A DNA stretch of 64,000 bases, from assembly GCF_003626635.1 (NCBI RefSeq), contig NZ_RAZT01000009.1, positions 248,001-312,000 of the forward strand. The letters are read 5' to 3'. The notes beneath the pieces were generated by a model that was given only the letters and a program-made list of their open reading frames with translations, was not told the DNA's origin and searched no databases. The position numbers were made by a program, and so were the translations under genes. Origin of the DNA: Micromonospora musae. Lineage in GTDB: Bacteria > Actinomycetota > Actinomycetes > Mycobacteriales > Micromonosporaceae. The stretch's first letter is position 1. Each line of letters opens with the position of its first letter. This document shows, in pieces, positions 2,075 to 25,145 of the stretch.

Positions 2075-4702
2075 ATGACATCTCGTGTTTTATCCGTGCC
2101 AGCTTCCCGCTGGCGGCGGCGCGCGCTCATCGGGCTCGCCGTGGCGCTGGTCGCGGCGCTCAGCCCGGCGGGCGTCGCACCACCCGCGCAGGCCGCCCCC
2201 ACCCTGCTGTCGCAGGGCCGCCCCGCCACCGCCTCGTCCACCGAGAACGCCGGCACCCCGGCGGCCGCGGCGGTCGACGGCAACACCGGCACCCGCTGGT
2301 CCAGCGCGTTCAGCGATCCGCAGTGGCTCCAGGTCGACCTCGGCACCCGGGCCACGATCAGCCAGGTGACCCTGGTCTGGGAGGGCGCCTACGCCCGCGC
2401 GTTCCAACTCCAGACCTCCGACGACGGCGGCACCTGGACCACCGTCCACAGCACCACCACCGGCGCCGGCGGCACCCAGAACATCACCGTGACCGGCGCC
2501 GGCCGCTACGTGCGGATGTACGGCACCGCCCGGGGCAGCGCCTACGGCTACTCGCTCTGGGAGTTCCAGGTCTACGGCGAGACCGGCGGCACCACACCGA
2601 CCTGCGGCAGCGCCAACGCCGCGCAGGGCCGACCGGCCACCGCCTCCTCCACCGAGAACGCCGCCCTGCCCGCCTCCGCGGCGGTCGACGGCGACGGCGG
2701 AACCCGGTGGGCCAGCGCCGCGAGCGACCCCCAGTGGCTGCGGGTGGACCTGGGCGGCACCCAGACGATCTGCAGGGTCGTGCTGACCTGGGAGGCCGCG
2801 TACGCCCGGTCCTTCCAGCTCCAGACCTCGGCCGACGGCAACGCCTGGACCACCGTCTACAGCACCACCACGGGCACCGGCGGCACGCAGAGCCTGACCG
2901 TCAACGGCAGCGGCCGCTACCTGCGGATGTACGGGACCGCCCGGGGCACCGCGTACGGCTACTCGCTCTGGGAGCTGCAGGTCAACACCACCGGCGGGGG
3001 CGGCGACCCGTCGATCCCGCCGACCGATCCGCGCAACCCGAACTTCGGGCCTAACACCTTCGTCTTCGACCCCAGCACCCCGACCGGCACCATCCAGAGT
3101 CGGTTGAACACCCTCTTCGACCAGCAGGAGGAGAACCAGTTCGGCCCGCAGCGGTACGCGGTGCTGTTCAAGCCGGGCACCTACACGGCCGACGTCAACC
3201 TCGGCTTCTTCACCCAGGTCGCCGGCCTGGGGATGAGCCCGGACGACGTGAACCTCAACGGCCACGTCCGGGTCGAGGCGTTCTGGATGAACGGAAACGC
3301 CACCCAGAACTTCTGGCGCGCCGCCGAGAACCTCTCGGTGACCCTGCCCGCCGGCGTGACGGTGGAGCGGTGGGCGGTCTCGCAGGCGGCCCCGTACCGC
3401 CGGATGCACCTGCGCGGCGGGCAGAACCAGATCCAGCTCTGGAACGGCGGTGACGGCTGGTCCAGCGGCGGCCTGATGGCCGACACCCGGATCGACGGCC
3501 TCGTCGTCTCCGGCTCCCAGCAGCAGTGGTACTCGCGCAACAGCGAGTTCGGAAACGGCTGGACCGGCTCGGTCTGGAACATGGTCTTCCAGGGCGTCGC
3601 CGGCGCACCGCCGCCGCACTTCCCGAACCCGTCGCACACCGTCATCCCGCAGACCCCGGTGGTGCGGGAGAAGCCCTTCCTCTACGTCGACGGCACCGGC
3701 GAGTACCGGGTCTTCGTACCGGCACTGCGCAGCAACACCACCGGCACCAGCTGGTACGGCAAGACCCCGGCCGGCTCGTCCATCTCGCTGTCGCAGTTCT
3801 TCGTCGTCCAGCCCGGCACCGGCGCGGCCACCATCAACGCGGCGCTCGCCCAGGGCAAACACCTGCTCTTCACCCCGGGCGTGCACCACGTCACCGAGCC
3901 GATCCAGGTCAACCGCGCCGACACGGTGATCCTCGGTCTCGGCCTCGCCACCATCCAGGCGGACAACGGCACCGTGGCCATGCGGGTGGCCGACGTGGAC
4001 GGTGTGAAGGTCGCCGGCATCATGTTCGAGGCGGGCACCACGAACTCGCCCGTGCTCATGGAGGTCGGCCCGGCCGGCTCGTCGGCCAGCCACGCGGCGA
4101 ACCCGACCTCGCTGCACGACGTGTTCTTCCGCATCGGCGGGCCGCACGTCGGCAAGGCCACCAACACGCTCACCGTCAACAGCGACAACGTGATCGGCGA
4201 CCACATGTGGTTGTGGCGGGCCGACCACGCGGCCTCCGGCGTACCGACCGGGTGGACGCTGAACACCGCCGACACCGGGCTGACCGTCAACGGCGACAAC
4301 GTCACCATGTACGGCCTCTTCGTCGAGCACTACCAGAGGTACCAGACCGTCTGGAACGGCAACGGCGGGCGGACGTACTTCTATCAGAACGAGATGCCGT
4401 ACGACCCGCCGAACCAGGCCGCCTTCATGAACGGCTCGACCCGGGGCTACGCCGCGTACAAGGTGGGCGACGGGGTGACCAGCCACCAGGGCTGGGGCAT
4501 GGGCAGCTACTGCTACTTCAACGTCAACCCCGCGGTCGTCGCCGAACGCGCCTTCGAGGCGCCGACCAATCCGAACGTACGGTTCACCAACCTGGTGACC
4601 GTCTCCCTCGGCGGGGTCGGCACCATCAACCGCGTGATCAACAACACCGGGGGCACCGCGAACACCGCCAACCAGCAGGTGTACCTGACCGCGTACCCGT
4701 AG
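2075..4702 (+). CDS. Secreted protein: two discoidin (F5/8 type C) domains plus C-terminal beta-helix
   Basis: The 875-residue product begins with a Sec signal peptide (twin arginines, hydrophobic core, likely cleavage after AQA near residue 40). Two similar F5/8-type-C/CBM32-like domains follow (about 43-170 and 180-308), each with the order SQGRPATASSTEN... or AQGRPATASSTEN..., TRW, SDPQW, and a closing YGYSLWE. The remaining ~550 residues (from PNTFVFDP) are rich in short beta-strand motifs, Asn and Gly, as in right-handed beta-helix glycan-active proteins (GH55/pectate-lyase-like folds). It probably acts outside the cell on a polysaccharide, with the discoidin domains binding glycan. The substrate cannot be read from sequence. 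The LacI-like operator just upstream fits sugar control, and a strong hairpin follows. Confidence 0.8.
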   Translation: MTSRVLSVPASRWRRRALIGLAVALVAALSPAGVAPPAQAAPTLLSQGRPATASSTENAGTPAAAAVDGNTGTRWSSAFSDPQWLQVDLGTRATISQVTLVWEGAYARAFQLQTSDDGGTWTTVHSTTTGAGGTQNITVTGAGRYVRMYGTARGSAYGYSLWEFQVYGETGGTTPTCGSANAAQGRPATASSTENAALPASAAVDGDGGTRWASAASDPQWLRVDLGGTQTICRVVLTWEAAYARSFQLQTSADGNAWTTVYSTTTGTGGTQSLTVNGSGRYLRMYGTARGTAYGYSLWELQVNTTGGGGDPSIPPTDPRNPNFGPNTFVFDPSTPTGTIQSRLNTLFDQQEENQFGPQRYAVLFKPGTYTADVNLGFFTQVAGLGMSPDDVNLNGHVRVEAFWMNGNATQNFWRAAENLSVTLPAGVTVERWAVSQAAPYRRMHLRGGQNQIQLWNGGDGWSSGGLMADTRIDGLVVSGSQQQWYSRNSEFGNGWTGSVWNMVFQGVAGAPPPHFPNPSHTVIPQTPVVREKPFLYVDGTGEYRVFVPALRSNTTGTSWYGKTPAGSSISLSQFFVVQPGTGAATINAALAQGKHLLFTPGVHHVTEPIQVNRADTVILGLGLATIQADNGTVAMRVADVDGVKVAGIMFEAGTTNSPVLMEVGPAGSSASHAANPTSLHDVFFRIGGPHVGKATNTLTVNSDNVIGDHMWLWRADHAASGVPTGWTLNTADTGLTVNGDNVTMYGLFVEHYQRYQTVWNGNGGRTYFYQNEMPYDPPNQAAFMNGSTRGYAAYKVGDGVTSHQGWGMGSYCYFNVNPAVVAERAFEAPTNPNVRFTNLVTVSLGGVGTINRVINNTGGTANTANQQVYLTAYP

Positions 4703-19940: not shown

Positions 19941-20774
19941 TCAGGCCAGCAGGACCGTCACGCCGGCCGTCCGCAGGTCGGCCACGACCTGCGGGTCGGC
20001 GGCGTCGTCGGTGACCAGGGTGTGTACGGCGGACGCGTCGCAGATCTTCGCGAAGGAGTGCCGGCCCAGCTTCTCCGAGCCGGCCACCACGACCACCTGG
20101 CGGGCCCGGCTGACCATCAACGCGTCGATGCCGGCCTCGCTCTCGTCGTGGCACGACGTGCCGTCGGTGGAGAACCCGTCGACACCGAGGAAGAGCACGT
20201 CGAGCCAGAGGGACTGCATGACCATGCTGGTCAGCGGCCCGGTCAGCTCGTACGACTGGGGCAGCGCGACGCCGCCGAGGATGACGGTGCGCACCGACTG
20301 CCGCAGCACCATCTCGGTGGCGATGTTCAACGCGTTGGTCACCACCGTCAGGGCCGGGCGGTTGGTGACCTGCGTCAGGTCGGGGCGGGCCGCGAGGTGC
20401 CGGGCGGTGGCCGAGGTCGTGGTGCCCCCGTTCAGCCCGACGACGCTACCCGGCTCGACCAGCCCGGCGGCGGTCGTCGCGATGCGTTCCTTGGTGCTGC
20501 GGTCGCCCCGGTAGCGGTAGCGCACCGGCAGGTCGTACGCGACCGAGCTGGCCACGATGCCGCCGTGGGTGCGGGTGACCAGCTGCTGCTCGGCCAGGAC
20601 GGTGAAGTCACGGCGGACGGTCGCCTCGGAGACCTGCAACGCGGCCGCGCCCTCGGCGACGGAGAGCCGCCCACCCCGCGCGGCCAGGATCTCCAGCAGC
20701 GCCTGCATCCGGCGGGACCGGTCGGCCATCCCACCGGCGGTGGCGGAGCCCGTGCTGGTCCCGGTCGAGGTCAC
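19941..20774 (-). CDS. DeoR-family repressor of a sugar-phosphate operon (AgaR/GatR-like)
   Basis: 277 residues. After a short disordered Ser/Thr/Gly tail, the DeoR HTH reads MQALLEILAARGGRLSVAEGA, LQVSEATVRRDFTVL with the wing RTHGGIV. The C-terminal domain is the phosphosugar-sensing fold (GLNGGTTTSATARHL, LFLGVDGFSTDGTSCHDE). It is the last gene of the operon and its start overlaps the aldolase stop by four bases (20771-20774). DeoR proteins of this type are released from DNA by a phosphorylated sugar of the pathway they control, here probably tagatose 6-phosphate or a hexosamine phosphate. Confidence 0.88.
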   Translation of the reverse strand: MTSTGTSTGSATAGGMADRSRRMQALLEILAARGGRLSVAEGAAALQVSEATVRRDFTVLAEQQLVTRTHGGIVASSVAYDLPVRYRYRGDRSTKERIATTAAGLVEPGSVVGLNGGTTTSATARHLAARPDLTQVTNRPALTVVTNALNIATEMVLRQSVRTVILGGVALPQSYELTGPLTSMVMQSLWLDVLFLGVDGFSTDGTSCHDESEAGIDALMVSRARQVVVVAGSEKLGRHSFAKICDASAVHTLVTDDAADPQVVADLRTAGVTVLLA

Positions 20775-21655
20775 GGCGCGGCCCCGGTCGAGGCCAGGCC
20801 GCTGTCGGCTCCGGCGGGCCCGTCCGCGGAGACGACCCGGCAGAAGTGGGCCACCGTCTCCGCCATCGCCTCCCGGGCCGGTGCCAGCCAGCGGCGCGGG
20901 TCCACCAGCTCCGGCTGGGCGGCCAGGGTTCGGCGCACACTGCCGGTGAGGGCGGTGTTCAGCGCCGTACCGATGTTCACCTTGACGATCCCGCCGGAGA
21001 CGGCGCGGCGCAGCTCGGCGTCGGGCACCCCGGACGAGCCGTGCAGCACCAGCGGCACCGTGACCGCCGCCCGCAGCCGCCCGATCAGGTCGTGGTCCAG
21101 TACGGCGTCCCGGACGGTCATGGCGTGCGCGGAGCCGACCGCGACCGCGAGCGCGTCCACCCCGGTCTGCGCCACGTACGACGCGGCCTCGGCCGGATCG
21201 GTACGGGCGCCGGGGGCGTGCGGGTCGACGGGCGGCTCGCCCTCCTTCCCGCCGACCGTGCCCAGCTCGGCCTCGACCCAGAGCCCCCGGTCATGGGCGA
21301 ACTCGGCGGCCGCCCGGGTCGCCGCGACGTTCTCCCGGTACGGCAACCGGGACGCGTCGACCATCACCGAGCCGAAGCCGTGCTCCGGCGCCTGACGCCA
21401 CAGCTCCGGGGAGACGACGTGGTCGAGGTGCAGCGCCACGTCGACGGTGGCGGTCGCCGCGACGGCCCGGGCCGCGGCGGCGATCGGTGCGAGCCGGCGG
21501 TGGAACCGGACGGCGTTCTCGCTGACCTGCAGCACCACCGATCGACCCGCGGCCTCCGCCCCGGCGACGATCGCCTCGGCGTGCTCCAGGGTTATCACGT
21601 TGAACGCGCAGACCGGTTCCGCGGCGACGAGCTCTCCGGTCGGTACGAGCGGCAT
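20771..21655 (-). CDS. Class II ketose-bisphosphate aldolase (tagatose-/fructose-1,6-bisphosphate)
   Basis: 294 residues from the ATG at 21655, in a TGATG one-base overlap with the kinase stop. Class II zinc aldolase motifs are present: AFNVITLEHAEAI, HLDHVVSPELW (metal-site His), ASRLPYRENVAAT, VEAELGTVGGKEG, LVLHGSSGVPDAELRRAV and GIVKVNIGTAL. In the pathway it would split tagatose 1,6-bisphosphate to dihydroxyacetone phosphate and glyceraldehyde 3-phosphate (as GatY/KbaY); fructose bisphosphate is the alternative. Context with SIS isomerase and PfkB kinase favours tagatose. Confidence 0.88.
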   Translation of the reverse strand: MPLVPTGELVAAEPVCAFNVITLEHAEAIVAGAEAAGRSVVLQVSENAVRFHRRLAPIAAAARAVAATATVDVALHLDHVVSPELWRQAPEHGFGSVMVDASRLPYRENVAATRAAAEFAHDRGLWVEAELGTVGGKEGEPPVDPHAPGARTDPAEAASYVAQTGVDALAVAVGSAHAMTVRDAVLDHDLIGRLRAAVTVPLVLHGSSGVPDAELRRAVSGGIVKVNIGTALNTALTGSVRRTLAAQPELVDPRRWLAPAREAMAETVAHFCRVVSADGPAGADSGLASTGAAP

Positions 21656-22596
21656 CACAACTCCTTGACGATCACGTCCCGGCGCAGCCGCCGGTAGTCG
21701 GACAGGTCCACACTCCCGGCCACCGGCGCCCGGACCGCCGCCGCCGACAGCGCCACCGCCTCGGCGAGCCGCTCGGGCCAGGGGCGCTGCCGGATCAGGC
21801 CGCTGGTCAGCGCGGCGACGCAGGCGTCGCCGGCCCCGGTCGGGTTGCCGGCGACCGGTTGCGGCACGTACGCGCGCCAGGCGCCCTCGCCGGTCACCGC
21901 GAGCAGCCCGTCCGGGCCGAACGAGGCGACGACGGTGGGCGCGTCGAGGCCGCGTACCGCCTCGAGCGCCGCGGCCGGTCGCGGCGGCGCGCAGCCGAGG
22001 AGGTCGGCGAGCTCGTCGGCGTTCGGCTTGACCAGGTCCGGGACGGCGCGCAGGCCGTGGCGCAGCGCCTGCCCGCTGCTGTCCAGCACGGTCCACGTGC
22101 CCGCGCGGCGGGCCGCCTCGATCAGCACGCGGTAGGCGTCGGCCGGTACCCCGAGCGGCAGGGAGCCGGAGAGCACGACCGCCGCCGCGTCGCGTACGAG
22201 GTCGGTGAAGCGGGTGCGGAAGGCGTCCCACTCGTCCGGGGTGATCGTCGGCCCAGGCTCCCAGAACCCGGTCGTCGAGTCGGGGGCCGCGACGACCACG
22301 GTGCGCCGGGACTCGGCCTCGATCGGCGCGAACGTCTCCGGCACCCCCTCCTGCGCCAGCAGGGATCGGATCCGCGTGCCGCAGGCGCCGCCCGCGAGGC
22401 CGGTGGCGACGACCGGGACGCCGAGGGTGTGCAGCAGGCGGGCGACGTTGACGCCCTTCCCGCCGGCCCGTTCGTCCACCCGGGACACCCGGTGCGCGGC
22501 GCCCGGCGTCAGGGCCGGAACGTGGTACGTCACGTCCAGCGCTGCGTTGAGGGTGACGGTGAGGATCCCGCCGCGCACCGCCTCCCCGGGGTTCAC
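21655..22596 (-). CDS. PfkB-family kinase (1-phosphofructokinase / tagatose-6-phosphate kinase type)
   Basis: 313 residues from the GTG at 22596, in a four-base GTGA overlap with the SIS gene stop. It begins ILTVTLNAALDVTYHV, the usual FruK/LacC start. PfkB signature 1 is ERAGGKGVNVARLL and signature 2 is NPTGAGDACVAAL, containing the catalytic Asp. It should phosphorylate a ketohexose phosphate at C1 (tagatose 6-phosphate or fructose) in the cytoplasm. Its place between a SIS isomerase and a class II aldolase favours tagatose 6-phosphate. Confidence 0.88.
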   Translation of the reverse strand: MNPGEAVRGGILTVTLNAALDVTYHVPALTPGAAHRVSRVDERAGGKGVNVARLLHTLGVPVVATGLAGGACGTRIRSLLAQEGVPETFAPIEAESRRTVVVAAPDSTTGFWEPGPTITPDEWDAFRTRFTDLVRDAAAVVLSGSLPLGVPADAYRVLIEAARRAGTWTVLDSSGQALRHGLRAVPDLVKPNADELADLLGCAPPRPAAALEAVRGLDAPTVVASFGPDGLLAVTGEGAWRAYVPQPVAGNPTGAGDACVAALTSGLIRQRPWPERLAEAVALSAAAVRAPVAGSVDLSDYRRLRRDVIVKEL

Positions 22597-23468
22597 GTCA
22601 GGATCACCGAGCGGGTCAGGTGACGTGGCGCGTCCGGGTCGAGGCCCCGCCGGACGGCCAGGTCGACGGCGAGTCGCTGCGCGAGGATCAGCTCCGCCAT
22701 CGGGTCGCGTGCGTTGTGCACGAAGGTGGCGCCGGTGGCGGTCACCTGCTCGGGCAGCCCCGCCGGCACGGCCCCGAACGCCCACACCGCCCTCCCGGGG
22801 CCCGCGACGGCGATCGGGCCGTGCCGGTAGTCCATGGCCGGGTACGCCTCGGCCCAGAAGCCGGCGGCCTCGCGGCACTTGAGCGCCGCCTCGTGGGCGA
22901 GGCCGACCGTCCAGCCCCGACCGAGGAACGTGACCTGTTCGAGCGCTGCCGGGTCCAGCGGCAGCGGGACGGTCAGCGCCGCGGTCGCGTCGCGTACCGC
23001 CGGGTCGAGGTGCTCGCCGAGGTGCGCCCGCAGCACCGCGAGCGCGGTGGTCGCGAAGCGGGTCTGCACGACCGACCTCTCGTCGGCGAACGGCAGCTCG
23101 ACCGGCTCGTCCACCAGGTTCGCCGCCGGCGACCGGGGATCACCGAACACCCCGGAGCTCGGCGTACGCCCCCGGACGGCGGCGAGGACGTCCAGCACCT
23201 CGGTGGTCGTGCCGGAGCGGCTGATCACCAGAACCCGGTCGTAGCGGCGTCGGGTGGGGAACTCCGACGCCGCGAAGGCGTCGGTCTCGCCGAGGCCGGC
23301 CTCTTCGCGCAGCCGGGCGTACGCCATGGCGACGAACCAGGACGTGCCGCAGCCGACCACCGCGACCCGTTCGCCCGGTCGTGGCAGCCGTTCGGCGAGA
23401 CCGGGCTGCGCGACGCCGCGTCGCCAGCACTGCGGCTGGGTGGCGATCTCCTGCTCGACGTGTGTCAT
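22593..23468 (-). CDS. SIS-domain phosphosugar isomerase/deaminase, AgaS-like
   Basis: 291 residues from the ATG at 23468 (GGAGC just upstream); the longer open frame beyond looks non-coding. It has two SIS domains: VGCGTSWFVAMAYARL with ISRSGTTTEVL in the first, and LGRGWTVGLAHEAALKCREA with MDYRHGPIAV in the second. The arrangement matches the GlmS isomerase half and AgaS. AgaS converts galactosamine 6-phosphate to tagatose 6-phosphate and ammonia. It is the first gene of the operon, divergent from the GH109-like gene. The usual deacetylase (AgaA/NagA) is not in this window. Confidence 0.82.
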   Translation of the reverse strand: MTHVEQEIATQPQCWRRGVAQPGLAERLPRPGERVAVVGCGTSWFVAMAYARLREEAGLGETDAFAASEFPTRRRYDRVLVISRSGTTTEVLDVLAAVRGRTPSSGVFGDPRSPAANLVDEPVELPFADERSVVQTRFATTALAVLRAHLGEHLDPAVRDATAALTVPLPLDPAALEQVTFLGRGWTVGLAHEAALKCREAAGFWAEAYPAMDYRHGPIAVAGPGRAVWAFGAVPAGLPEQVTATGATFVHNARDPMAELILAQRLAVDLAVRRGLDPDAPRHLTRSVILT

Positions 23469-23696
23469 GCCGCTCCGACCCGCCGCCAACGAGGCAACTC
23501 GCCCGGCGTGAAATCGCGCGATCCGGCGGCCAGCCGAGCGTAAACGGTCAGTCTGCCCTTCGGCAATCCGTACCTCTCGATCTCGCGAAGGTGCGGGACC
23601 ACCCCTTGCCATCGATGTCTGTCTGATCGACACTGCTCACTGGATGACGTAAGCAGGCAAGTTCGATCAGGTCCCCTTCAGCTAGGGAGTGATCAC

Positions 23697-25145
23697 GTGA
23701 CCCCGCCACCTCAGTTCAATCCGTCCCGCCGTGACCTGCTCCGCTCCGGTGCCGTGCTCGGCGCCGCAGCCGGCCTCACCGGCGCCGTGGGCGCCTCCGC
23801 CGCCGCCGACGAGGGAGGCTTCGAACCCGCCCGCGGCCGCGGCGAGAAGAGCATGGTCGACGTGCCGTTCGAGGGCTTCGAACAGGTCCGCGTCGGGCTC
23901 ATCGGCGTCGGCAACCGCGGCGGCGACCAGGACCGGCGGTGGGGTGCCGTGGCCACGGTCACCGCCGTCTGCGACATCCGCCCCGACCGGGTCGAGCGGA
24001 CCATCAGCCGGATCATGGAGCAGGGCTTCCAGGACACCCCGCCCGTCGGCTACGCCGACGGCGAGGAGGACTTCCTCAACCTCGTCCGACGCGACGACAT
24101 CGACCTCGTCTACATCGCCACCCCCTGGGAGTGGCACCACCCGATGGCCAAGGCGGCCATGGAGCACGGCAAGCACGTCGCCGTCGAGCTGCCGATCGCC
24201 CCGTACCTCGACGACATCTGGGACCTGGTCCGGACCTCGGAGCGGACCCGCAAGCACTGCATGCTGCTGGAGAACGTCAACTACTTCCGGCCCGAGATGG
24301 CGATGTTCAACATGGCCCGGCAGGGGATCTTCGGCGACCTCCAGCACGCCTCCGGCGGGTACGTCCACGACCTGCGCTGGCCCTACCTCTTCGGCGGCGC
24401 CTACCACCCAGAGCAGTGGCGGCGTCGCTGGCAGACGCGGATGAACGCCCTGCACTACCCGATGCACGGCCTGGGGCCGGTCTCGGCCGCCCTCGGCGTC
24501 AACCGCGGCGACCGGTTCGAGGAGCTGGTGGCCGTGGCCTCCGTACCCAAGGCGCTGGCCCTGTTCCGCTCCGAGGACCCGCGGGTCGGCGAGGACCACT
24601 CGTCGTGGGACGACCGGCCCTACATCTCCGGCGACCGGCACACCTGCTTCGTGACCACCACCAACGGCCGGTTCATTCGGGTCGAGCACGACGTGAACTC
24701 CCCGCACCCCTACAGCCGGGAGACCACCCTCACCGGCACCCGGGGCTCGATCGAGCTGGACAACTCCCGGGTCTACCTCGAGTCGCTCGGCCACCAGAAC
24801 CACACCTGGCGGACCGGCAACGACTACAACACGATCCTGCGGCAGCACGACCACTGGCTCTGGCCCACGCTGGAGGAGCTGGCCGATCAGTACGGCGGCC
24901 ACGGCGGCGGTGACTTCATCTCCATCTGGCGGCTCGTCCAGCTGATGCGGCTCGGCATGACCCCCGACATCGACGTGTATGACTCGGCCGCCTGGTGCTC
25001 CGTCATCCCGCTCAGCCACGAATCGTTGAAGAGCGGCCGGATGCGCCCGGTCAAGGTGCCCGACTTCACCCGCGGGCACTGGCAGCGGGCCCGACCCACG
25101 TTCGACCGGCCGAAGCCCGAGGACCCCTGGTTGAAGAAGAGCTGA
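23697..25145 (+). CDS. Tat-exported Gfo/Idh/MocA protein of GH109 type (alpha-N-acetylgalactosaminidase-like)
   Basis: 482 residues from GTG, with GGGAG eight bases upstream. The N-terminus is a twin-arginine signal (SRRDLLRSG plus hydrophobic stretch ending ASAAA). A Rossmann NAD fold follows (VGLIGVGNRGGDQ). Beyond the generic Gfo/Idh/MocA fold, several stretches recall GH109: ATPWEWHHPMAKAAMEHGKH, LLENVNYFRPEMAM, GGYVHDLR, YPMHGLGPVSAALGVNRGDR and DVYDSAAWCSVIPLS. GH109 enzymes keep NAD bound and cleave alpha-linked GalNAc by an oxidation-elimination mechanism; Tat export fits a folded, cofactor-loaded enzyme. Divergence from the AgaS-like operon supports a GalNAc role. Exact substrate is unproven. 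Confidence 0.8.
   Translation: MTPPPQFNPSRRDLLRSGAVLGAAAGLTGAVGASAAADEGGFEPARGRGEKSMVDVPFEGFEQVRVGLIGVGNRGGDQDRRWGAVATVTAVCDIRPDRVERTISRIMEQGFQDTPPVGYADGEEDFLNLVRRDDIDLVYIATPWEWHHPMAKAAMEHGKHVAVELPIAPYLDDIWDLVRTSERTRKHCMLLENVNYFRPEMAMFNMARQGIFGDLQHASGGYVHDLRWPYLFGGAYHPEQWRRRWQTRMNALHYPMHGLGPVSAALGVNRGDRFEELVAVASVPKALALFRSEDPRVGEDHSSWDDRPYISGDRHTCFVTTTNGRFIRVEHDVNSPHPYSRETTLTGTRGSIELDNSRVYLESLGHQNHTWRTGNDYNTILRQHDHWLWPTLEELADQYGGHGGGDFISIWRLVQLMRLGMTPDIDVYDSAAWCSVIPLSHESLKSGRMRPVKVPDFTRGHWQRARPTFDRPKPEDPWLKKS

What the first reader, a model, noticed from the sequence alone, without database searches (positions are those of the whole stretch)
20771..25145. GH109-like Tat-exported protein divergent from an AgaS/PfkB/aldolase/DeoR operon: a GalNAc utilisation island
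The Gfo/Idh/MocA protein at 23697 matches recalled GH109 motifs and is exported folded by Tat. The opposite operon supplies the exact steps from galactosamine 6-phosphate to triose phosphates (isomerase/deaminase, kinase, class II aldolase) plus a DeoR repressor. Deacetylase, GalNAc kinase and transporter are missing from the window, so the pathway is split or uses other enzymes. The upstream truncated ROK gene could be a hexosamine kinase but is 20 kb away.
Basis: partly seen in the sequence, partly recalled or inferred. Interest (0 to 1): 0.65.

Follow-up and report, generated by a model that had tools for sequence, protein, structure and literature searches.

The report
Split GalNAc-use gene cluster in Micromonospora
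A soil actinobacterium carries an exported enzyme that probably clips the sugar GalNAc off glycans, next to genes that probably break that sugar down; the key deaminating enzyme is not the textbook one, and candidates for the steps that seemed missing sit elsewhere in the genome.

Summary
The window lies in a Micromonospora genome. 23697-25145 is a GH109-type protein: it has the Pfam GH109 C-terminal domain, aligns along its length with two solved GH109 enzymes, keeps the three published catalytic residues (Y222, H257, H402 in the GGHGG loop) and has a twin-arginine signal. It is divergent from a tight SIS-PfkB-aldolase-DeoR operon. The SIS protein is not AgaS: profiles and fold place it with GlmS/GlmD/NagB-II. 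GH109 occurs in 16 of 151 Micromonospora genomes; a SIS gene lies within 0.5 kb in 15 of these. Two cluster types share GH109 (about 81%) and an ABC transporter (about 76%) but carry different SIS, PfkB and aldolase lineages; one clade for both SIS sets is rejected (p-AU 9e-5). The transporter is gone from this strain. Candidates for the missing steps lie elsewhere: a NagA-ROK-SIS operon, and an AgaS/AgaZ/kinase/permease cluster. Best reading: exported GH109 frees GalNAc; a kinase and NagA encoded elsewhere give GalN6P; the operon takes it through tagatose phosphates to trioses. Specificities are inferred, not shown, and the separate AgaS-family gene is a serious rival. New variant of a known kind; moderate interest.

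The parts
23697..25145 (+). GH109-type NAD-dependent alpha-N-acetylgalactosaminidase (predicted), Tat-exported (predicted), 482 aa; predicted catalytic Y222, H257, H402
   Evidence: PF21252 147.1 bits; PDB 6t2b/2ixa; residue alignment with residues taken from PMC10755693 passages; twin-arginine segment
23469..23696 (.). divergent promoter region with blocks conserved among type A relatives: TTCGATCAG (8 of 9 regions) 26 nt before the GH109 start in the window, CGAGCNTAA (9 of 9) on the SIS side
   Evidence: alignment of 9 intergenic regions, one of them (L080) bounded by PfkB instead of SIS; motif counts; function not tested
22593..23468 (-). SIS-domain phosphosugar deaminase/isomerase of the GlmS/GlmD/NagB-II branch (predicted galactosamine-6-P deaminase); not AgaS family
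   Evidence: Pfam and NCBIfam, PDB sequence search, tree, predicted fold and PDB fold search
21655..22578 (-). PfkB-family kinase of the hexose/1-phosphofructokinase subfamily (predicted tagatose-6-P kinase)
   Evidence: PF00294 140.9 bits; TIGR03168 285.5 bits, over its cut-off 216.4; 1-phosphofructokinase TIGR03828 257.7 (cut-off 292); lacC 164.8 (cut-off 409.55)
20771..21655 (-). class II ketose-bisphosphate aldolase (predicted tagatose-1,6-bisphosphate aldolase)
   Evidence: PF01116 272.7 bits; TIGR00167 215.1 bits, just under its cut-off 215.6; the one other match in the genome is 34% identical, E 7e-7
19941..20774 (-). DeoR-family regulator; best NCBIfam match AgaR (159 bits, cut-off 260)

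Best explanation
This is a GalNAc-acquisition cluster. The Tat-exported, NAD-loaded GH109 enzyme removes terminal alpha-GalNAc from extracellular glycans. GalNAc enters by a transporter encoded elsewhere (in relatives, an ABC system in the same cluster), is phosphorylated by a HexNAc kinase (the C8 ROK or the C24 BadF-type kinase) and deacetylated by the single NagA on C8. The operon's SIS protein, of the GlmD/NagB-II branch rather than AgaS, turns galactosamine-6-P into tagatose-6-P; PfkB makes tagatose-1,6-bisphosphate; the class II aldolase cleaves it to triose phosphates; the DeoR protein represses the divergent promoters until substrate is present. Shown here: families, catalytic residues, export signal, operon anatomy, conserved linkage, location of the other genes. 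Inferred: every substrate specificity, the direction of flow, and the regulation.
For: GH109 family and catalytic residues. A SIS gene lies within 0.5 kb of GH109 in 15 of 16 GH109-positive Micromonospora genomes. Module swap: type A and type B clusters share GH109 (81-83% over the query) and the ABC transporter (binding protein 74-77%), yet SIS is 56-57%, PfkB 41% and aldolase 60% identical (type B kinase and aldolase read only in G047); one clade for both SIS sets is rejected, p-AU 9e-5 (the sets are defined by layout, but I had already seen a quick tree). The same sugar source joined to two lineages of the same enzyme trio argues for one pathway. GH109 also lies with SIS and varying sets of aldolase, PfkB, ROK and DeoR in two Nocardiopsis records (L105, L106) and Crossiella (L107), and with SIS and DeoR in Saccharopolyspora shandongensis (L121). 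GH27 and GH31 genes with NPCBM domains flank the cluster in G057 and G048, a GH31 in G131. A kinase and aldolase dedicated to the deaminase product make little sense for fructose-6-P but are what tagatose-6-P needs (pathway: PMC12118421 passages). Type B clusters carry, in 5 of 7 stretches read, a ROK 76-79% identical to the ROK of this genome's NagA operon. NagA can serve GalNAc-6-P: S. coelicolor NagA kcat/Km 1.03e4 per M per s (PMC12680351 passages); E. coli nagA replaces agaA (PMC3668189 passages). Of 16 GH109-positive genomes 12 have no full-length AgaS-family match; 11 of these 12 have the linked SIS.
Against: The genome also holds an AgaS-family gene in a separate AgaZ-AgaS-kinase-permease cluster, so this SIS is not the only candidate for GalN6P. 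Sequence does not tell GalN6P from GlcN6P or tagatose from fructose: PfkB fits the 1-phosphofructokinase models better than lacC, and the best aldolase models are named for fructose-1,6-bisphosphate. The SIS proteins of Crossiella and Saccharopolyspora match the Nag-operon SIS of this genome better (61%, 58%) than the window SIS. G027 has GH109, PfkB and DeoR but neither SIS nor aldolase beside them (L080). Of 14 printed GH109 records outside Micromonospora, 10 (L100-L104, L108-L112) show no SIS gene within the stretch (the scan kept the best 80 of 401 relatives). No close counterpart of the relatives' sugar-binding protein was found here.
Confidence: 0.66

Rival explanations
1. The AgaS-AgaZ-kinase-permease cluster on C24 is the real GalNAc/GalN route; the window operon is a second system, for another aminosugar or for glucosamine-type input, and GH109 feeds both or neither.
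For: AgaS-family match 471 bits over the full model (under its cut-off 529), AgaZ/GatZ 651 bits (over cut-off), NagK-like BadF kinase, EamA permease in a row. Full-length AgaS matches occur in 4 of 16 GH109-positive genomes against 1 of 54 GH109-negative ones, Fisher p 0.008, not corrected for ancestry. The window SIS is 70% identical to the SIS of the NagA operon.
Against: Full-length AgaS matches are missing in 12 of 16 GH109-positive genomes, 11 of which keep the linked SIS. The 30 kb read around the C24 cluster gives no match to the window PfkB or aldolase or to NagA or the C8 ROK, and the window aldolase is the only close member of its kind in this genome: the two clusters may complete each other.
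Confidence: 0.2
2. Sulfoquinovose route: the Gfo/Idh/MocA protein is an NAD-dependent sulfoquinovosidase (GH188) and PfkB/aldolase/DeoR are sulfoglycolysis enzymes.
For: GH188 enzymes share the fold type and an analogous oxidoreductive mechanism and sit in sulfoglycolysis gene clusters (PMC10755693 passages).
Against: The window protein aligns with GH109 references over about 400 residues (40% and 35% identity) and has the GH109 catalytic Tyr and GGHGG histidine; the paper reports Glu163 at the Tyr position in ArSqgA and 15% identity between ArSqgA and AmGH109. The SIS partner is of aminosugar-6-phosphate type. The sulfonate-binding residues were not aligned here.
Confidence: 0.04
3. The cluster is decaying: an island that has lost its transporter and no longer forms a working pathway in this strain.
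For: The binding-protein gene is in the type A clusters of G057, G131 and G179 but not in those of this strain, G016, G020, G048 or G107; G048 keeps a 38-residue piece matching the second permease (92% identity) between aldolase and DeoR, a sign of loss; G027 has no SIS or aldolase beside GH109 (L080).
Against: The window genes are full length and match their families; promoter blocks are conserved.
Confidence: 0.1

Closest known systems
GH109 alpha-N-acetylgalactosaminidases (Akkermansia 6t2b, Elizabethkingia 2ixa)
   Same: Alignment over about 400 residues (40% and 35% identity), three catalytic residues, Rossmann domain, PF21252 domain
   Different: Actinobacterial form with a twin-arginine signal beside an aminosugar operon; no activity data. 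Organism of 2ixa recalled
Bacteroides thetaiotaomicron BT4240-4250 (GH109 with a GalNAc kinase)
   Same: GH109 genetically linked to GalNAc metabolism; a GH31 as a second alpha-GalNAcase of that organism (PMC11992087 passages)
   Different: That locus uses a GalNAc 1-kinase and a mucin-degrading set; here GH109 is linked to a deaminase, a PfkB kinase and an aldolase
E. coli / Shewanella Aga (GalNAc) pathway
   Same: Same predicted chemistry: kinase or PTS, deacetylase, deaminase, tagatose-6-P kinase, tagatose-bisphosphate aldolase (PMC12118421, PMC3668189, PMC2996990 passages); AgaR-like DeoR regulator
   Different: Deaminase is of the GlmD/NagB-II branch, not AgaS; deacetylase and kinase are not in the operon
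NagB-II / GlmD SIS-type glucosamine-6-P deaminases
   Same: Best fold matches (2cb0, 1j5x, 2df8; NagB-II 8eym 15th; 3c3j, E. coli AgaS by my recall, 48th)
   Different: Linked to PfkB, aldolase and GH109; lacks a 17-residue insert of the Nag-operon paralogues (present in 12 of 12, missing in the 28 other rows)

Membership tests
GH109 | GH109 C-terminal domain and Gfo/Idh/MocA Rossmann domain | tested here: met
   PF21252 147.1 bits (cut-off 27), PF01408 53.2 bits (cut-off 24)
GH109 | Catalytic Tyr226, His259 and His404 (GGHGG loop) of AmGH109 | tested here: met
   Y222, H257, H402 aligned; kept in 16 of 16; residue roles from PMC10755693 passages. The numbering offset of 25 is my inference from the chain numbering; all three residues fit it
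GH109 | Placement among GH109 proteins in a tree | tested here: inconclusive
   Actinobacterial clade in a tree with 6t2b and 2ixa, but no non-GH109 outgroup was included, the search was quick, and the two references are the longest branches
GH109 | NAD-dependent alpha-GalNAc hydrolysis | not testable with these tools
   needs an assay
AgaS (TIGR02815) | Family model score over 529.2 bits | tested here: not met
   31.1 bits
NagB-II / GlmD SIS deaminase | Curated equivalog score (430 / 580 bits) | tested here: not met
   45.4 and 67.1 bits: same branch, not the curated families
NagB-II / GlmD SIS deaminase | Fold of this branch and GlmS-like catalytic Glu and His | tested here: met
   Top fold hits 2cb0, 1j5x, 2df8; E207 and H216 invariant in 20 of 20; the catalytic roles are recalled from GlmS, not tested
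Tagatose-6-P kinase (lacC) | Curated score over 409.55 bits | tested here: not met
   164.8 bits; the wider 1-PFK subfamily model TIGR03168 is met with 285.5 bits, cut-off 216.4
Class II ketose-bisphosphate aldolase | PF01116 | tested here: met
   272.7 bits; TIGR00167 missed by 0.5 bit
AgaR | NF040755 score over 260 bits | tested here: not met
   159 bits, its best NCBIfam match
GH188 sulfoquinovosidase | Glu at the position of GH109 Tyr226 (as in ArSqgA) | tested here: not met
   Tyr is kept
GH188 sulfoquinovosidase | Sulfonate-binding residues | not tested
   no GH188 sequence was aligned here

The most novel reading that the evidence does not exclude
Actinobacteria have a GalNAc pathway in which galactosamine-6-P deamination is done by a GlmD/NagB-II-type SIS enzyme (non-orthologous replacement of AgaS), and the GH109 gene with its transporter has been joined to different lineages of the SIS-PfkB-aldolase trio several times; in this strain the pathway is spread over three loci, and the window aldolase is the catalytic partner of the AgaZ subunit encoded elsewhere.
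Probability: 0.45. Interest if true: 0.5.

Novelty: new variant of a known kind. Interest (0 to 1): 0.36.

Why it matters
A published survey of gut genomes used AgaS as the signature gene of GalNAc use (PMC5583593 passages). If actinobacteria use a NagB-II-branch enzyme for this step, such surveys miss them, and SIS genes annotated as glucosamine-6-P deaminases beside PfkB and aldolase would be read wrongly. The GH109 clade with a Tat signal is also a source of alpha-GalNAcases to test. In the listings of my searches no title or abstract start described GH109 linked to an aminosugar operon in Micromonospora or Actinobacteria; I did not open the five papers, and the library holds only part of the literature.

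Tried and rejected
AgaS label for the SIS gene: rejected. The idea that the type A SIS is a recent re-use of the Nag-operon deaminase: not supported in that direction, because the 12 Nag-type rows carry an insert that the 28 other rows lack, so the Nag form looks derived. GH188 sulfoquinovosidase: disfavoured. Streptomyces NagS (a GlcNAc-6-P dehydratase of the SIS superfamily): set aside, since the paper relates it to MurQ and finds it only in Streptomycetaceae (PMC12680351 passages); not aligned here. Shared operator for the DeoR protein: blocks are conserved in the 9 type A regions and one exact TTCGATCAG recurs in a type B promoter, but I found no shared palindrome and ran no chance control on the motif; sigma-70 and terminator scans gave nothing. 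The GlmS lysine that forms the Schiff base (K603, recalled) reads Arg by eye in the 27 SIS proteins, so it does not separate Gal-type from Nag-type. Ten neighbour proteins of L101, L102 and L103 gave no GalNAc pathway family.

In one search my gene caller, trained on this high-GC window, left many GH109 genes unlabelled in L113-L175, so missing labels there mean nothing and those loci were not counted. Six of seven type B stretches end before PfkB and aldolase could be seen.

It added the 38-residue permease remnant in G048 and the identities between type A and type B, and corrected a motif statement (8 of 9 for TTCGATCAG); the recount gave ten, not nine, records without SIS.
Full report
OBSERVATION. 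ORF calling gives DeoR 19941-20774(-), aldolase 20771-21655(-), PfkB 21655-22578(-), SIS 22593-23468(-) and, divergent, 23697-25145(+). The four minus-strand genes overlap by 4 nt and 1 nt or are 14 nt apart. The window is contig C9 248001-312000 of a 7.07-Mb, 33-contig genome. The closest named record in the GH109 scan is Micromonospora sp. 15K316 (97%).

GH109. The protein has PF21252 (147.1 bits, cut-off 27) and PF01408. Its best solved relatives are 6t2b, a 'Glycosyl hydrolase family 109 protein 2' (E 6.4e-90), and 2ixa, an alpha-N-acetylgalactosaminidase (E 3.5e-61). PMC10755693 (passages) names the AmGH109 catalytic residues Tyr226, His259 and His404; these align with Y222, H257 and H402 and are kept in 16 of 16 Micromonospora homologues. 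The numbering offset (25) is my inference from the chain numbering. A twin-arginine segment is present in 16 of 16 (12 as called; 4 just upstream of the called start), although the Pfam Tat score (20.3) is under its cut-off. PF21252 occurs once in the genome.

THE SIS GENE IS NOT AgaS. It scores 31.1 bits on the AgaS model (cut-off 529.2), against GlmS 85, GlmD 67.1, NagB-II 45.4, all under their cut-offs. A confident model (mean pLDDT 90.5, 20 aligned sequences) matches 2cb0 and 1j5x, both titled glucosamine-6-phosphate deaminase, best; 3c3j (E. coli AgaS by my recall) ranks 48th. Of 101 genomes searched, 99 have some SIS match, many of them weak.

CONSERVED LINKAGE. GH109 occurs in 16 of 151 Micromonospora genomes (E below 1e-250; the next best match in another genome is 9e-14). 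In 15 of the 16 a SIS gene lies 136-420 bp from GH109; the exception is G027. Type A (window, G016, G020, G048, G057, G107, G131, G179; G027 reduced) is divergent. Type B (G047, G106, G118, G127, G130, G148, G164) is co-directional, with ABC transporter genes on the other side of SIS in 7 of 7 and a ROK kinase in 5 of 7 stretches read. Between the types GH109 is 81-83% and the binding protein 74-77% identical, but PfkB 41% and aldolase 60% (type B read only in G047) and SIS 56-57%. Forcing the type A and type B SIS into one clade costs 67 log units, p-AU 9e-5; I had seen a quick tree before, and several rows are long branches. Type A GH109 groups with Kribbella, Nonomuraea and Isoptericola (SH-aLRT 89, not starred, quick tree). 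So GH109 with its transporter seems to have been joined to different SIS-PfkB-aldolase lineages. Outside Micromonospora I printed gene maps of 14 GH109 records: 4 have a SIS gene in the stretch (two Nocardiopsis, Crossiella, Saccharopolyspora shandongensis), 10 do not (one search kept the best 80 of 401). Sugar-type MFS genes are in the Nocardiopsis L106 and Saccharopolyspora stretches. In 61 genus genomes the type A SIS is seen in 5, all among the 7 with GH109 (not corrected for ancestry). GH27 and GH31 genes flank type A in G057 and G048 and a GH31 in G131; the two tested carry NPCBM domains. The SIS-PfkB-aldolase locus L042 is flanked by two GH20 genes.

THE TRANSPORTER WAS PROBABLY LOST. 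Type A clusters of G057, G131 and G179 have the binding-protein gene after the aldolase; those of the window, G016, G020, G048 and G107 do not. G048 keeps a 38-residue piece matching the second permease at 92% between aldolase and DeoR. In the window's genome the binding protein has 16 matches, the best 27% identical.

WHERE THE REST IS. C8 holds NagA (TIGR00221 274.7 bits, over cut-off), ROK, a SIS paralogue and a DeoR gene. NagA has one match in the genome; the canonical NagB model has none. Type B ROKs are 76-79% identical to the C8 ROK. C24 holds GntR, AgaZ/GatZ (650.8 bits, over cut-off 568.8), AgaS family (471.2 bits, under cut-off 529.2), a NagK-like BadF kinase and an EamA permease; no match to PfkB, aldolase, NagA or the C8 ROK was found in 30 kb there. 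Full-length AgaS matches occur in 4 of 16 GH109-positive genomes and 1 of 54 GH109-negative ones (Fisher p 0.008). The window aldolase's only other match in the genome is 34% identical. A Glyco_hydro_114 gene (endo-polygalactosaminidase family by recall) exists on C13.

MECHANISM. Exported GH109 releases GalNAc; uptake and phosphorylation use genes elsewhere; NagA deacetylates (S. coelicolor NagA acts on GalNAc-6-P at about a tenth of its GlcNAc-6-P efficiency, PMC12680351 passages; E. coli nagA and agaA replace each other, PMC3668189 passages); SIS, PfkB and aldolase finish. The argument for tagatose rather than fructose is that a dedicated kinase and aldolase follow the deaminase; sequence alone cannot decide it.

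VERDICT. A real, conserved GalNAc-type cluster with a non-AgaS deaminase: a new variant of a known kind. Interest is moderate; enzyme assays are decisive.

Noticed in passing
L183:9102-13609 (own genome C24): AgaZ-AgaS-BadF kinase-EamA permease cluster with a GntR gene; full-length AgaS-family matches were seen in 5 of the 70 Micromonospora genomes searched.
   Followed up: partly
L183:4946-7020 (own genome C24): Twin-arginine, melibiase-like gene (PF02065, 21 bits, under cut-off) that reads as two overlapping ORFs in different frames: a broken gene or an assembly error.
   Followed up: no
L176 (own genome C13:1202-1858): Glyco_hydro_114 family match, 182.8 bits; could supply galactosamine oligomers from fungal galactosaminogalactan (role recalled).
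   Followed up: no
L036:12916-13029 (G048): 38-residue piece matching the ABC permease at 92% between aldolase and DeoR: remnant of a lost transporter.
   Followed up: partly
L080 (G027): Reduced type A cluster: GH109, PfkB and DeoR present, SIS and aldolase missing.
   Followed up: no
Nag-operon SIS paralogues, e.g. L032:9111-10040: 17-residue insert in the C-terminal part in 12 of 12 Nag-type SIS rows, missing in the 28 other rows; a possible marker of GlcN6P-type function.
   Followed up: partly
L107:661-2604 and L039:7497-9494: DUF5107 proteins near SIS genes in Crossiella and in another family of the order; role unknown.
   Followed up: no
window 2141-4702: Predicted 853-aa protein with two F5/8 type C domain matches, next to the ROK gene at the window edge.
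   Followed up: no
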